A stretch of 38,690 nucleotides of DNA from Lachnospiraceae bacterium (GTDB taxonomy: Bacteria > Bacillota > Clostridia > Lachnospirales > Lachnospiraceae), in contig CAAFTS010000075.1 of the NCBI GenBank assembly GCA_900765975.1, forward strand, positions 1 through 38,690, written 5' to 3'. Positions 23,480 through 26,276 of the stretch are shown here, one piece after another. The position numbers were made by a program, and so were the translations under genes. The notes below the pieces were generated by a model. That model had not been told where the DNA came from. It worked only from the letters and a program-made list of their open reading frames with translations, and searched no databases. Each line of letters opens with the position of its first letter. Positions within the stretch are counted from its first letter, which is position 1.

Positions 23480-24310
23480 ATGGCAGTGATAGAAACTGAT
23501 TTAGGCTCAGTAGTGGGTCCTCAAGGGCCTGCAGGGCCGAAAGGAGCAACCGGGGCTACCGGAGCACAGGGGCCAAAAGGAGATACCGGATTGACTGGCC
23601 CGCAGGGGCCAAAGGGTGCGACCGGTGCCACGGGAGCACAGGGGCCGAAAGGAGATACTGGCACTACCGGCCCCCAGGGGCCGCAGGGACCTGCCGGAAA
23701 GGTAGATGCTACTGTTCCTGTATCTTTTACGGATGCATCATCCAGATTGAACCTAACAACGGGTGAAACAATAGGAACTTTAGTTGGTAAGATGTCTAAA
23801 TGGCTGAAGGATACGAAATATCTTGCATTCAGCCGTGTGATAGATCTGGTAAGCAAGACAACTCCAGCCAGTACGGATGCGTTTTTACTGGAGGAATCTA
23901 CAGGGATAGGAAAGAAGCTGTTATTTTCCAACTTTTTGACTTATCTGCAGAATGAGGTTAAACCTAAAACGACGGCGGGTAACGTTGCCTTTACAAAAGC
24001 TGATGGAACTGCAAGCAATGTGCAGGATACTGTTACTGCATTAAACTCCGCTTTGGGTGGATATATGATACAAGCTGGAAGAATCAATATAACTCCTAAG
24101 GCAAATACTCCAACGACAAAACGCCTAACCTTTCCAAAACCATTCAAAGAGCAGGCGATAGTCTTGTTGACCCCTGTTTCAGGAGTACCAGGTCAAAAGG
24201 TGCTTGGCGTAGGTACATTAAATAACACCCGTGATGGATGTGATGTTATTTTAACGAGAACGGAAACCACAGAGACTGTAATTGCTTGGACCGCTATCGG
24301 GCCAGTATAG
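23480..24310 (+). CDS. Collagen-like fibre with interchangeable C-terminal knob
   Basis: 276 residues. Gly-X-Y repeats fill residues about 12-75, a connecting region of 100 residues follows, and the C-terminal 89 residues after LNSALGG form the knob (FPKPFKEQAIVLLTPVSGVPG to VIAWTAIGPV) of a small lectin-like beta fold. The crossover sequence TAAACTCCGCTTT (24042-24054) encodes the LNSAL at the junction. The knob is one of four alternative modules of the downstream inversion system, and only this one is currently joined to the gene. Its stop is 8 bases from the stop of the opposite-strand silent module. Confidence 0.93.
   Translation: MAVIETDLGSVVGPQGPAGPKGATGATGAQGPKGDTGLTGPQGPKGATGATGAQGPKGDTGTTGPQGPQGPAGKVDATVPVSFTDASSRLNLTTGETIGTLVGKMSKWLKDTKYLAFSRVIDLVSKTTPASTDAFLLEESTGIGKKLLFSNFLTYLQNEVKPKTTAGNVAFTKADGTASNVQDTVTALNSALGGYMIQAGRINITPKANTPTTKRLTFPKPFKEQAIVLLTPVSGVPGQKVLGVGTLNNTRDGCDVILTRTETTETVIAWTAIGPV
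24042..24054 (+). repeat. Inversion site 1 (in-frame, expressed)
   Basis: TAAACTCCGCTTT, forward orientation, inside the fibre gene. Extended homology TTTGGGTGG is shared with site 2. Confidence 0.85.
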
Positions 24311-24318
24311 AATATTAA

Positions 24319-24586
24319 TTACATTTGCCCTATTGCGATCCAGACCAAGATAGTCTCTGTATTATCTTTCCTTGTGACATAAGCCTCAAACCCATTTAAT
24401 GTATTATAACTCGTGCCACACCCCAATAAAAAAGTACCAGGTACCGATGTTATAGGCGTAAGGACCACTCCTGGTTGACCTTTAAACGGCTTAGGAAAAG
24501 TTACCTTTTTCATGGTTGGTTCATTTGGTTTGGGAATTATCGTAACCCTACCGATTTGTATTGCCATTCCACCCAAAGCGGAGTTT
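24319..24586 (-). pseudogene. Silent alternative fibre knob, cassette 2
   Basis: On the minus strand an uninterrupted 89-codon reading frame (LNSALGGMAIQIGRVTIIPKPN to ETILVWIAIGQM) is clearly homologous to the knob in the fibre gene (shared RVTI.PK, FPKPFK, LTP, VPG and W.AIG positions). It has no start or ribosome site and begins at an inverted copy of the crossover sequence. It spans the same 268 bases as the active knob, so inversion between sites 1 and 2 would replace one with the other in frame. Not broken: a stored alternative. Confidence 0.9.
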
Positions 24587-24587
24587 A
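24575..24587 (-). repeat. Inversion site 2 (inverted)
   Basis: AAAGCGGAGTTTA, the reverse complement of the site 1 sequence. It borders cassette 2 and overlaps the probable -35 of the recombinase promoter. Confidence 0.85.
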
Positions 24588-24612
24588 GCACAACACTGGA
24601 AACTGGTATAAT
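24584..24612 (+). promoter_or_regulatory. Promoter of the fibre recombinase, overlapping site 2
   Basis: TTTAGC at 24584-24589 and TATAAT at 24607-24612, 17 bases apart, with TGG before TATAAT as an extended -10. The -35 overlaps the edge of crossover site 2, so recombinase bound there could repress its own gene. Confidence 0.55.
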
Positions 24613-24637
24613 CATAGGCAAAAAGGAGGATTTGTCT

Positions 24638-25636
24638 ATGGAACCACGAATGGAACTTATTAACAGCGTTTTGGCAGCAATGACAGCGTTGCTGGCGGCG
24701 GAGCAACTGGACAAACTGCAGGAGGTGTTGTGTATCAAGTTGCATGATTTTGAGGTGCAACCACGGAGCACAGAGGTGATGATCACCGATAATAGCGCCG
24801 AAGGAATGCTCAACAGGTTTATTGCAACAAAGCGCCTGGAAGGTACTGCAGAGACAACCATACGCTTGTATTCCCCTTACATAATGGGACTGATACGGGC
24901 ACTGGGAAAGCCACTGTATAAGGTGGATACTTATGATATCCGGTACTATCTGTCGTTGTATAAACAGCAGCGGCAGGTAGCGAACCGGACACTGGAGAAT
25001 ATGAGGAAATGCTTTTCGAGTTTCTTCGGATGGCTGTCGGATGAGGGCCTGATCGGGAGGAATCCTTGTAAGGCTATAAAGGCTATCAAGTATGAAAAGA
25101 CAGTAAAAAAGCCGTTTTCACCGGAAGAAAGAGAGCGTCTAAAAAACGCCTGTACTAATCTTAGGGATCTGGCGTTGATTGAATTTTTGTATGCCAGTGG
25201 CTGCCGTGTATCAGAGGTGGTCAGACTTAACAGGAGTGACATAAAATTTCACAGCAGGGATGTGGTCGTGCTGGGAAAAGGTGGAAAAGAGAGAAGGATA
25301 TACCTGACAGAGGTTGCAACGATGCACCTTGCGAATTATCTTGCTCATCGGCGGGATGACAGCCCGGCTTTATTCGTTTCCCGGCACGCTCCACACGGAC
25401 GTATGGGGAAAACCGGAATAGAGTCGGTCTTGCGGAAACTGGGAGAGAAAACAGGGATAGAAAAGGTGCATCCGCATAGATACCGGCGCACACTTGCTAC
25501 GAATCTTGTTGACAGAGGAGCGCCGATACAGGACGTACAACAGATATTAGGCCATGCGGATATAAGGACAACACAGATTTATCTATATAATAATCCGCAG
25601 AATATCAGATACAGCTATGAAAAATACAGTGCATAA
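24638..25636 (+). CDS. Tyrosine recombinase of the tail-fibre inversion system
   Basis: 332 residues from ATG 24638 (AAAAAGGAGGATTTGTCT before it). The N-terminal part is a SAM-like core-binding domain; the catalytic domain has R190 (GCRVSEVV), K214/K217 (LGKGGKERR), H280-x-x-R283 (HPHRYRR), H306 (LGHADIRTT) and the nucleophile Y315. It is XerC/D-like and distinct from the phage integrase at 30204-31412. It lies between sites 2 and 3 and so is itself flipped by some inversions. It most likely catalyses recombination between the four TAAACTCCGCTTT sites, changing the fibre knob, in the manner of Rci in plasmid shufflons. Confidence 0.9.
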   Translation: MEPRMELINSVLAAMTALLAAEQLDKLQEVLCIKLHDFEVQPRSTEVMITDNSAEGMLNRFIATKRLEGTAETTIRLYSPYIMGLIRALGKPLYKVDTYDIRYYLSLYKQQRQVANRTLENMRKCFSSFFGWLSDEGLIGRNPCKAIKAIKYEKTVKKPFSPEERERLKNACTNLRDLALIEFLYASGCRVSEVVRLNRSDIKFHSRDVVVLGKGGKERRIYLTEVATMHLANYLAHRRDDSPALFVSRHAPHGRMGKTGIESVLRKLGEKTGIEKVHPHRYRRTLATNLVDRGAPIQDVQQILGHADIRTTQIYLYNNPQNIRYSYEKYSA

Positions 25637-25658
25637 GCAATAAAATGAGTGTTTTTTT

Positions 25659-25683
25659 AGTCTGCTAACGGCAGGCTTTTTTG
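25659..25683 (+). terminator. Terminator after the recombinase
   Basis: AGTCTGC and GCAGGCT pair (one G-T pair) around TAACG, followed by six T. It keeps recombinase transcription out of cassette 3. Confidence 0.65.
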
Positions 25684-25727
25684 GCGTGTCTTAAAAGTGG
25701 TAGAAACCGATAATTTTCGGTGTGAAA

Positions 25728-25740
25728 TAAACTCCGCTTT
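25728..25740 (+). repeat. Inversion site 3 (forward)
   Basis: TAAACTCCGCTTT, identical to site 1 over 13 bases, at the 5' edge of cassette 3. Confidence 0.85.
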
Positions 25741-25999
25741 ACCACATATTGAAAAGGGATCCATTAGAGCAAATGCAAGTACAACCGGCGCGATGACTGC
25801 AATAAAATTCTCGAAAGCTTTCACGGTAGCTCCTACTGTTGCACTTAGCCTACAGGATTCAGGTGCTGCCTGGGCCGATGTTACACATTTTTCTGCAAAT
25901 GATGTTACGACTACTGGTTTTAATATTATGTGTAAATGCAAAAATGCGTCAGGTTCGTCTCTTGATACTATAAAGATAGCTTATATTGCAATTGGATAA
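25729..25999 (+). pseudogene. Silent alternative fibre knob, cassette 3 (H-type lectin-like)
   Basis: A 271-base forward module with an open frame in phase with NSAL (INSALPHIEKGSIRANASTTGAMTAIKFSKAF to DTIKIAYIAIG) and no start or ribosome site of its own. The pattern FSKAFTVAPTVALSLQDSG, then VTTTGFNI, looks like an H-type lectin domain and differs clearly from cassettes 1, 2 and 4. To be expressed it needs two successive inversions. It ends 8 bases before the stop of cassette 4. Confidence 0.87.
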
Positions 26000-26007
26000 T
26001 AAAGTAT

Positions 26008-26275
26008 TCACATCGGCCCTATAGCTACCCAAGTGATTTCTGTATCCGTACTGTTTGTTCTTAAAACGTATGCATCAAAACCGTCCTTGGTGTTACTGGA
26101 TGTTCCGACTCCTAAAACTGTCACACCGGGAACTGAAGTTATGGGAGTAAGCGAAACATGTGCCTTTTCCTTAAATGGTTTTGGAAATGTTACCCGTTTT
26201 GATGTGGGTTCATTTGGTTTTGGTGTAATTGTTACCCTTCCAGCCTGAATCCAATAATTTCCTAAAGCGGAGTTT
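26008..26275 (-). pseudogene. Silent alternative fibre knob, cassette 4
   Basis: A minus-strand module of 268 bases whose frame begins LNSALGNYWIQAGRVTITPKPN and ends DTEITWVAIGPM, very close to cassettes 1 and 2 but with many changes in the loop region (VSLTPITSVPGVTVLGVGTSSNTKDG). Without its own start it is silent in this orientation. Inversion between sites 1 and 4 would fuse it to the fibre gene and reverse the whole recombinase block. Confidence 0.9.
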
Positions 26276-26276
26276 A
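26264..26276 (-). repeat. Inversion site 4 (inverted)
   Basis: AAAGCGGAGTTTA, the reverse complement of the shared 13-base core, at the outer edge of the inversion region. Confidence 0.85.

What the first reader, a model, noticed from the sequence alone, without database searches (positions are those of the whole stretch)
24042..26276. Four-cassette tail-fibre shufflon with its own tyrosine recombinase
The core TAAACTCCGCTTT occurs four times in alternating orientation (24042 +, 24575 -, 25728 +, 26264 -). Each copy marks the in-frame start (NSAL) of a fibre knob: one joined to the collagen fibre, three silent. The knobs come in two back-to-back pairs with only 8 bases between stops, and cassettes 1, 2 and 4 span an identical 268 bases from the core to the stop. 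A dedicated tyrosine recombinase sits between the pairs. Inversions 1x2, 1x4, 2x3 and 3x4 could present any of four receptor-binding tips, giving a phage population with mixed host range. Single-fibre inversions by serine invertases (Gin/Hin type) are known, and Rci shufflons occur on plasmids; a multi-cassette tyrosine-recombinase version on a collagen-like phage fibre seems little described.
Basis: partly seen in the sequence, partly recalled or inferred. Interest (0 to 1): 0.94.

Follow-up and report, generated by a model that had tools for sequence, protein, structure and literature searches.

The report
Phage fibre-tip shuffler with central recombinase
A phage, likely of gut Blautia-like bacteria, carries four predicted fibre tips around a predicted DNA-flipping enzyme, and public proteins together with its own gene show the fibre shaft fused to three of these four tips, so it likely switches which bacterial surfaces it binds.

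Summary
TAAACTCCGCTTT occurs exactly four times (24042+, 24575-, 25728+, 26264-), each opening a fibre-tip frame in the same phase; the tips form two convergent pairs around a Xer-like tyrosine recombinase (24638-25636). Strongest new evidence: natural switching. Of 96 database fibres, three share the window's 117-residue shaft stretch exactly; P0127 and P0125 match residues 1-192 in full and carry silent tips c2 and c4 letter for letter, the third carries c1. These are the tips one inversion away; c3, which needs two inversions or a deletion, was not found on this shaft. Relatives with 41-59% identical recombinases repeat the layout: in 19 loci (72 sites) the site is TAAA-6 bp-TTT, the 6 bp shared within a locus but varying between loci, as expected for a crossover region. 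Two loci use the device on hsdS genes. A related phage contig keeps one tip pair without the recombinase, the product expected if direct sites recombine. Phage tip shufflons with tyrosine recombinases are published (Rin: Bifidobacterium 2018, Eggerthella 2022), so this is a new variant of a known kind. Recombination, host and binding were not tested.

The parts
23480..24310 (+). Expressed fibre: collagen-like repeats, shaft to residue 188, then tip 1 (c1)
   Evidence: Pfam Collagen 3e-9 and Gp53-like_C 3.9e-6; PHROGs tail/tail fibre
24042..24055 (+). Site 1, TAAA-CTCCGC-TTTG, inside the fibre gene (codes L-N-S-A-L)
24044..24310 (+). Tip cassette c1 (joined to the shaft)
   Evidence: AlphaFold pLDDT 90.8, R-pyocin fibre tips and H-type lectins are the top PDB matches
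24319..24585 (-). Silent tip cassette c2; found fused to the identical shaft in P0127
24574..24587 (-). Site 2
24585..24612 (+). Promoter-like TTAGCA-16-TATAAT (TG-extended) before the recombinase; its -35 overlaps site 2 (consensus match only)
24638..25636 (+). Tyrosine recombinase, 332 aa, Xer-like, no arm-domain match, with a conserved N-terminal extension of about 57 aa
   Evidence: Phage_integrase 4.2e-37, Phage_int_SAM_4 8.6e-11; NCBIfam XerA_Arch over its cut-off, XerC and XerD below theirs; R189, K213, H279, R282, H305, Y314 (numbering without the first Met) invariant in 18 of 18 aligned relatives (their naming as the active site is recalled)
25659..25683 (+). Terminator-like hairpin with T run, closing the recombinase module before site 3 (consensus match only)
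25728..25741 (+). Site 3
25730..25999 (+). Silent tip cassette c3, H-type lectin
   Evidence: Pfam H_lectin 7.7e-10; AlphaFold pLDDT 84.2, best PDB matches SLL-2, phage tailspikes and Helix agglutinins
26008..26274 (-). Silent tip cassette c4; found fused to the identical shaft in P0125
26263..26276 (-). Site 4
26378..26396 (+). Terminator-like hairpin outside the array (consensus match only)

Best explanation
This is a predicted four-cassette shufflon in a predicted tail-fibre gene, in which the Xer-like tyrosine recombinase encoded between the two cassette pairs would invert DNA between four short identical sites and so likely exchange the predicted lectin-like tip fused to the collagen-like fibre shaft. 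Shown by sequence: four identical sites, always in frame; two convergent tip pairs; a recombinase gene between them; the same shaft with three of the four tips in public proteins; the same layout in related phages. Inferred: recombinase monomers bind the TAAA/TTT arms and exchange strands within the central CTCCGC; because this hexamer is asymmetric, inverted sites give inversion and direct sites would give deletion. Inversion alone links 16 arrangements, four for each expressed tip; c2 and c4 are one step away and c3 two. The recombinase lies inside every interval that a deletion could remove, so a deleted descendant would be frozen. Effect on host range: inferred from tip fold and position.
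For: Sites, frames and layout. Recombinase identity. Natural tip switching: P0127 and P0125 match the window's fibre in 192 of 192 residues and then carry c2 and c4 at 84 of 84; P0122 (190 of 192) carries c1. A second lineage: the L128 shaft is 178 of 178 identical in P0197, P0207 and P0208; P0207 ends in L128's expressed tip, P0197 in its silent one. L014's expressed tip is 84% DNA-identical to the window's silent c2, the match starting within a base of the site and ending a few bases past the stop. In 19 loci and 72 sites, 24 minority letters fall in columns 2-13 and none in the central six. Unbiased scan with AAA-N6-TT(T/A), one hexamer in at least 3 places and both orientations: 13 of 89 recombinase loci, 0.3 expected from shuffles; 10 of the 13 are among the 19 and one more (L043) shows the same layout. 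Recombinase and fibre run the same way in 12 and opposite ways in 5 of 17 fibre loci. Two metagenome contigs repeat a cassette start of 55-57 nt up to the site at a contig end, as a mixed population would assemble (L010, L021); 6 of 25 contig ends of 18 loci lie within 60 nt of a site against 1.4 expected.
Against: No reads, junction PCR or recombinase assay. Switching of the window's own locus is seen only in proteins; the DNA of those contigs could not be reached. The c3 joint was not found on this shaft. Of the closest 21 viral loci, L020, L023, L025 and L028 gave no clear site set and L026 is a copy of L027; L004-L008 gave none and L009 only one two-site pair. L015 has, besides its seven sites, a pair with another hexamer (CCTCAC, 2403+ and 2572-) that I left out of the count. 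Nine of the 19 loci do not pass the strict motif, because one or more of their sites depart from it in the arms. Host and binding are untested.
Confidence: 0.92

Rival explanations
1. The silent tips are a cold archive: tips move by homologous recombination between phages, and the short sites are only conserved coding sequence at the shaft-tip border.
For: Other fibre relatives carry unrelated tips after the same NSA(L/M) border (P0137, P0138, P0151); whether they have arrays is not known.
Against: The tips are only 55-64% DNA-identical outside the site while the site is 13/13. The central hexamer is shared within loci and differs between loci. P0125 and P0127 carry exactly the window's own silent tips on a letter-identical shaft. 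A recombinase gene sits inside or beside each array seen.
Confidence: 0.05
2. The recombinase acts mainly elsewhere (integration or hsdS switching) and the fibre sites are served in trans or are relics.
For: The hsdS loci L002 and L003 carry a related recombinase with the same site design. The two-site locus of L128 has no recombinase of this kind in its 9,945-base contig, yet both its tips occur on the same shaft.
Against: The window has a separate integrase (30204-31412). In 12 of the 13 loci seen complete at both ends the recombinase sits between two pairs of sites.
Confidence: 0.05
3. On the side question of L128: single pairs of this type are the ancestral form, and four-site arrays arose by gaining a recombinase module plus a second pair, rather than L128 being a deletion product.
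For: The outer flanks match in both forms (60 of 64 bases right of the last site), so either direction fits.
Against: A central recombinase with four sites is the common form in the loci seen (12 of 13 complete ones); a 1x3 or 2x4 deletion gives L128's form in one step.
Confidence: 0.35

Closest known systems
Rin shufflon of Bifidobacterium prophages (PMC6109161, abstract and passages read)
   Same: Dedicated arm-less, XerD-like tyrosine recombinase separate from the integrase; short asymmetric site (11 bp) before each variable C-terminal cassette of the receptor-binding protein; variable C-termini of 95-100 residues; inversions seen in sequenced DNA.
   Different: Its site TTCCCTAACCC is absent here; the recombinase there lies at one side of the cassette block; host phylum differs; here two convergent pairs flank the recombinase. 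Kinship of the two recombinases not tested.
Rin-like shufflon of Eggerthella lenta prophages (PMC8778435, passages read)
   Same: Tyrosine recombinase, H-type lectin tip cassettes, short repeats.
   Different: 8-bp repeat ttccgtat; small cassette genes in tandem downstream of the recombinase.
Min shufflon of p15B and Cin/Gin of P1/Mu (as described in passages of PMC6109161; detail recalled)
   Same: Tail-fibre tip exchange by inversion; Min is multi-segment.
   Different: Serine recombinase; here the enzyme is a tyrosine recombinase.
Rci shufflon of R64 (recalled)
   Same: Tyrosine recombinase, multi-segment, C-terminal tips of an adhesin.
   Different: Cargo is PilV; its 19-bp site (consensus recalled) has no match here with up to 3 mismatches.
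hsdS inversion systems with tyrosine recombinase (PsrA, PMC7096588, passages read; L002 and L003 here)
   Same: L002 and L003 have the same site grammar (TAAA-6 bp-TTTA), the same frame and a related recombinase (41% identity).
   Different: Cargo is DNA-recognition subunits. PsrA uses 15-bp IR1 repeats; it was not compared in sequence.

Membership tests
Rin-type phage receptor-binding-protein shufflon | constant N-part with alternative in-frame C-terminal cassettes of a tail protein | tested here: met
Rin-type phage receptor-binding-protein shufflon | dedicated arm-less tyrosine recombinase, separate from the integrase | tested here: met
   the integrase at 30204-31412 shows a weak Arm-DNA-bind_4 match (below cut-off), the shufflon enzyme none
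Rin-type phage receptor-binding-protein shufflon | short asymmetric repeat before each cassette | tested here: met
Rin-type phage receptor-binding-protein shufflon | rix sequence TTCCCTAACCC | tested here: not met
   0 matches with up to 1 mismatch
Rin-type phage receptor-binding-protein shufflon | alternative arrangements observed at DNA level | tested here: inconclusive
   protein-level fusions for this locus; contig-end signals in relatives L010 and L021
Rin-type phage receptor-binding-protein shufflon | recombinase homologous to Rin | not tested
   no Rin sequence was fetched
Gin/Cin/Min serine invertase systems | serine recombinase catalyses inversion | tested here: not met
   the enzyme in the array is of the Phage_integrase (tyrosine) family
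Rci plasmid shufflon | sfx site and PilV cargo | tested here: not met
   recalled sfx consensus absent with up to 3 mismatches; cargo matches tail fibres
Four-site family defined here (TAAA-6 bp-TTT sites, in frame, recombinase between two convergent pairs) | layout + - [recombinase] + - with one hexamer | tested here: met
   window plus 11 of 12 other loci complete at both ends; L015 has at least 7 sites of one hexamer with the recombinase at the edge, and a further pair with another hexamer

The most novel reading that the evidence does not exclude
A single recombinase family with one portable device (two convergent cassette pairs, four in-frame TAAA-6 bp-TTT sites, recombinase in the centre) has been plugged into different cargo, phage fibre tips and type I restriction specificity subunits, and reset to new specificity simply by changing the six central bases. 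Placing the recombinase in the centre makes deletion self-limiting: any deletion removes the enzyme and locks the survivor as a single pair.
Probability: 0.5. Interest if true: 0.78.

Novelty: new variant of a known kind. Interest (0 to 1): 0.63.

Why it matters
It turns a sequence guess into a testable switch, with predicted one-step and two-step tips, a predicted crossover hexamer and arms, and a predicted frozen deletion form. The family view (12 distinct hexamers in 19 loci, two kinds of cargo) gives a natural series for learning how tyrosine recombinases read arms and spacer. If the tips bind different cell-surface glycans, phage populations on gut Lachnospiraceae would carry mixed tips generated by flipping rather than by mutation, which bears on how temperate phages keep up with surface variation.

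Tried and rejected
Tried without result: relatives in IMG/VR by the recombinase alone (none), in GTDB genomes (one 27% relative), phage records by DNA (only short stretches, mostly collagen repeats; one 60-base match to Blautia phage Montmirail) and plasmids (none). A search of the window's own genome was not possible. c3 on the window's shaft was sought and not found. One search found 32 viral stretches with one core match each; one (L114) is L014's contig, the other 31 were not examined. The right-flank motif found L128 and two loci not examined further, L131 and L132. L006 (Terrisporobacter phage) has a related recombinase beside tail genes, but no clear site set. L031-L089 were scanned only with the strict motif (L031-L040 also): L043 fits the layout, L075 (a palindromic hexamer counted on both strands) and L089 (two hexamers, not followed) are doubtful, the rest gave none. 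PDB sequence search for c3 gave nothing.

Rejected: serine-invertase and Rci readings; chance repeat; the long recombinase start at 24512 (used in the database entry P0002), because it would read back through site 2 and antisense of c2, whereas ATG 24638 follows AAAAAGGAGG.

Weak points kept in view: site strings were chosen per locus from inverted repeats, which favours identity within a locus; mismatches were allowed anywhere and none of 24 fell in the centre, and repeats the search without chosen strings. In one search, 27 loci were checked for repeated contig ends and four had one: L010 and L021 at a site, L030 (35 nt) away from any site, L058 (69 nt) with no known sites. The contig-end test assumes that ends fall uniformly.
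Full report
OBSERVATION. The 13-base core occurs four times exactly, in alternating orientation, at the stated coordinates. It is the only 13-mer with four copies in 21000-29000; one of 300 Markov shuffles reached three copies and none four. Each copy starts an open frame in the same phase, NSAL, and runs to a stop 269, 269, 272 and 269 bases from the core start; the stops of each pair are 8 bases apart. 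Outside the site the cassettes are 55-64% identical in DNA, so the perfect site is a DNA-level constraint and not only a coding one.

PARTS. The expressed gene (23480-24310) has collagen repeats, a shaft and a tip of Pfam Gp53-like_C; the silent tips on the minus strand match the same family (c2 just below its cut-off), and c3 is an H-type lectin. Predicted structures of c1 and c3 have the same order of six strands, and both match H-type lectins, R-pyocin fibre tips and phage tailspikes in the PDB. The enzyme (24638-25636) has a core-binding and a catalytic domain of the Xer type and no arm-domain match; six catalytic residues (naming recalled) are invariant in 18 of 18 aligned relatives. It has a promoter-like sequence whose -35 overlaps site 2 and a terminator-like hairpin before site 3, so it could be expressed in either orientation; these are consensus matches only. 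In L014 the terminator-like hairpin before site 3 recurs; the scan found no promoter-like match at the matching place there.

NATURAL SWITCHING. A protein search with residues 72-276 of the fibre gave 96 proteins. Three share the window's 117 shaft residues exactly; they carry c1 (99%), c2 (84 of 84) and c4 (84 of 84). Over residues 1-192 P0125 and P0127 are identical to the window and P0122 differs at two. predicts that c2 and c4 are one inversion away and c3 two; c3 was not seen on this shaft. With three sequences this agreement is weak but in the right direction. A second lineage repeats it: the shaft of L128 is 178 of 178 identical in P0197, P0207 and P0208, with L128's expressed tip in P0207 and its silent tip in P0197. 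The DNA behind these proteins could not be fetched, so exchange by other means is not formally excluded.

THE FAMILY. Of 359 encoding stretches in viral contigs the best 80 were kept. I examined the 21 closest, L010-L030, by inverted repeats: 16 gave a clear set (recombinases 41-59% identical to the window's), L026 is a copy of L027, and L020, L023, L025 and L028 did not. With the window and two of eight phage records fetched (L002, L003) this makes 19 loci and 72 sites. Thirteen loci hold both sides: twelve have exactly + - [recombinase] + -, and L015 has at least seven sites with the recombinase at the edge. Six are cut by a contig end and agree with the rule as far as they go. Sites read TAAA-N6-TTT(A/G) with some departures in the arms, in the same frame in nearly all, coding (L/I)-N-x-x-(L/M/I) as the commonest form. 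The hexamer of the counted sites is identical within each of the 19 loci and takes 12 forms among them; in columns 2-13 there are 24 minority letters, none in the six central columns. L015 has a further pair with another hexamer, CCTCAC, left out of this count. Conserved arms with a locus-specific centre are what established tyrosine-recombinase biology expects of binding arms and overlap region. A scan that chooses no strings, AAA-N6-TT(T/A) with one hexamer at three or more places in both orientations within 4 kb of the recombinase, hits 13 of 89 loci against 0.3 expected; 10 of them are among the 19, L043 is a new one with + - [recombinase] +, and L075 and L089 are doubtful. Nine of the 19 miss this strict form. 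PHROGs tail families were found for the carrier proteins of L010, L011, L017, L018, L019, L022, L027 and L030 among ten scanned; L021 matched families of unknown function only and L013 none.

OTHER CARGO. In L002 the same device lies in a type I restriction locus (hsdM, hsdS, inverted hsdS, recombinase, hsdS, hsdR), and L003 has hsdS on both sides. In a tree of 45 recombinases the three hsdS-linked ones (L002, L003, L004) group together (SH-aLRT 96; quick tree, long branches present). L004 is beside hsdM and hsdS but no site set was found there.

SIGNS OF MIXED POPULATIONS IN RELATIVES. The recombinase runs with the fibre in 12 and against it in 5 of 17 fibre loci, the carrier being judged by the longest open frame before a site. 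L010 and L021 end in 57 and 55 bases that repeat a cassette start up to the site elsewhere in the same contig, which is what an assembly graph of two arrangements leaves; a true duplicate cut by the contig end is the alternative. Two others of 27 loci checked have repeated ends not tied to a site (L030, L058). Six of 25 contig ends of 18 loci lie within 60 nt of a site against 1.4 expected (P 0.002, uniform-end assumption).

DELETION. Over the 16 arrangements there are 32 possible deletions between direct sites and none keeps the recombinase. L128, a phage contig with a related fibre, has a single convergent pair, no recombinase of this kind in 9,945 bases, and beyond its second site the window's right flank of site 4 (60 of 64 bases). 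That is the predicted product; an ancestral single pair is the rival.

KNOWN SYSTEMS. [quoted passage not shown] So the kind is known. An older report of an Rci-like integrase in a Pseudomonas prophage (PMC2647930, passages) describes no fibre array in the passages seen. I found no report of a Blautia or Clostridia case or of the shared fibre/hsdS device in the listings, which cover open-licence papers only; passages were read of PMC6109161, PMC8778435, PMC8042965, PMC8987985, PMC7096588 and PMC2647930. PsrA (PMC7096588, passages) is the studied hsdS parallel. Novelty: new variant of a known kind.

HOST. The database fibres with related shafts that bear a species name come from Blautia, and the best phage record by DNA is Blautia phage Montmirail (short match, 67%). 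The host is therefore likely a Blautia-like Lachnospiraceae; not shown.

Noticed in passing
window 10269-10326 (+): Rfam GP20-b RNA (RF03003), 53.5 bits, just upstream of the ORF at 10326.
   Followed up: no
window 2738-4662 (+): ParA-like ATPase (AAA_31) followed by two ORFs without a family over its cut-off, before the terminase genes; could be a partition or cargo module.
   Followed up: partly
window 22430-22461 and 23426-23457: Two neighbouring tail genes (21833-22474 and 22487-23467) end in nearly the same motif, FEIR(E/S)GHLYAI, although the proteins differ.
   Followed up: no
L015 2403-5930: Expanded relative with at least seven different tips and seven sites (centre CTCCTC) beside the recombinase, one tip joined to a 237-residue fibre part, plus a pair of site-like repeats with another centre (CCTCAC) just before the recombinase.
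   Followed up: partly
recombinase residues 1-57: A conserved N-terminal extension before the Xer-like part in the 18 aligned relatives, and a stretch of like length in the hsdS-linked enzyme of L002; its role is unknown.
   Followed up: partly
L128 4557-5158; P0197, P0207: A two-site locus without recombinase in its contig, yet both tips are found on the identical shaft, which hints at a trans-acting enzyme or a recent loss.
   Followed up: partly
L009 1950-2514: A faecal phage record with a distant recombinase has one inverted pair AAA-TAATAA-TTT 0.5 kb apart.
   Followed up: no
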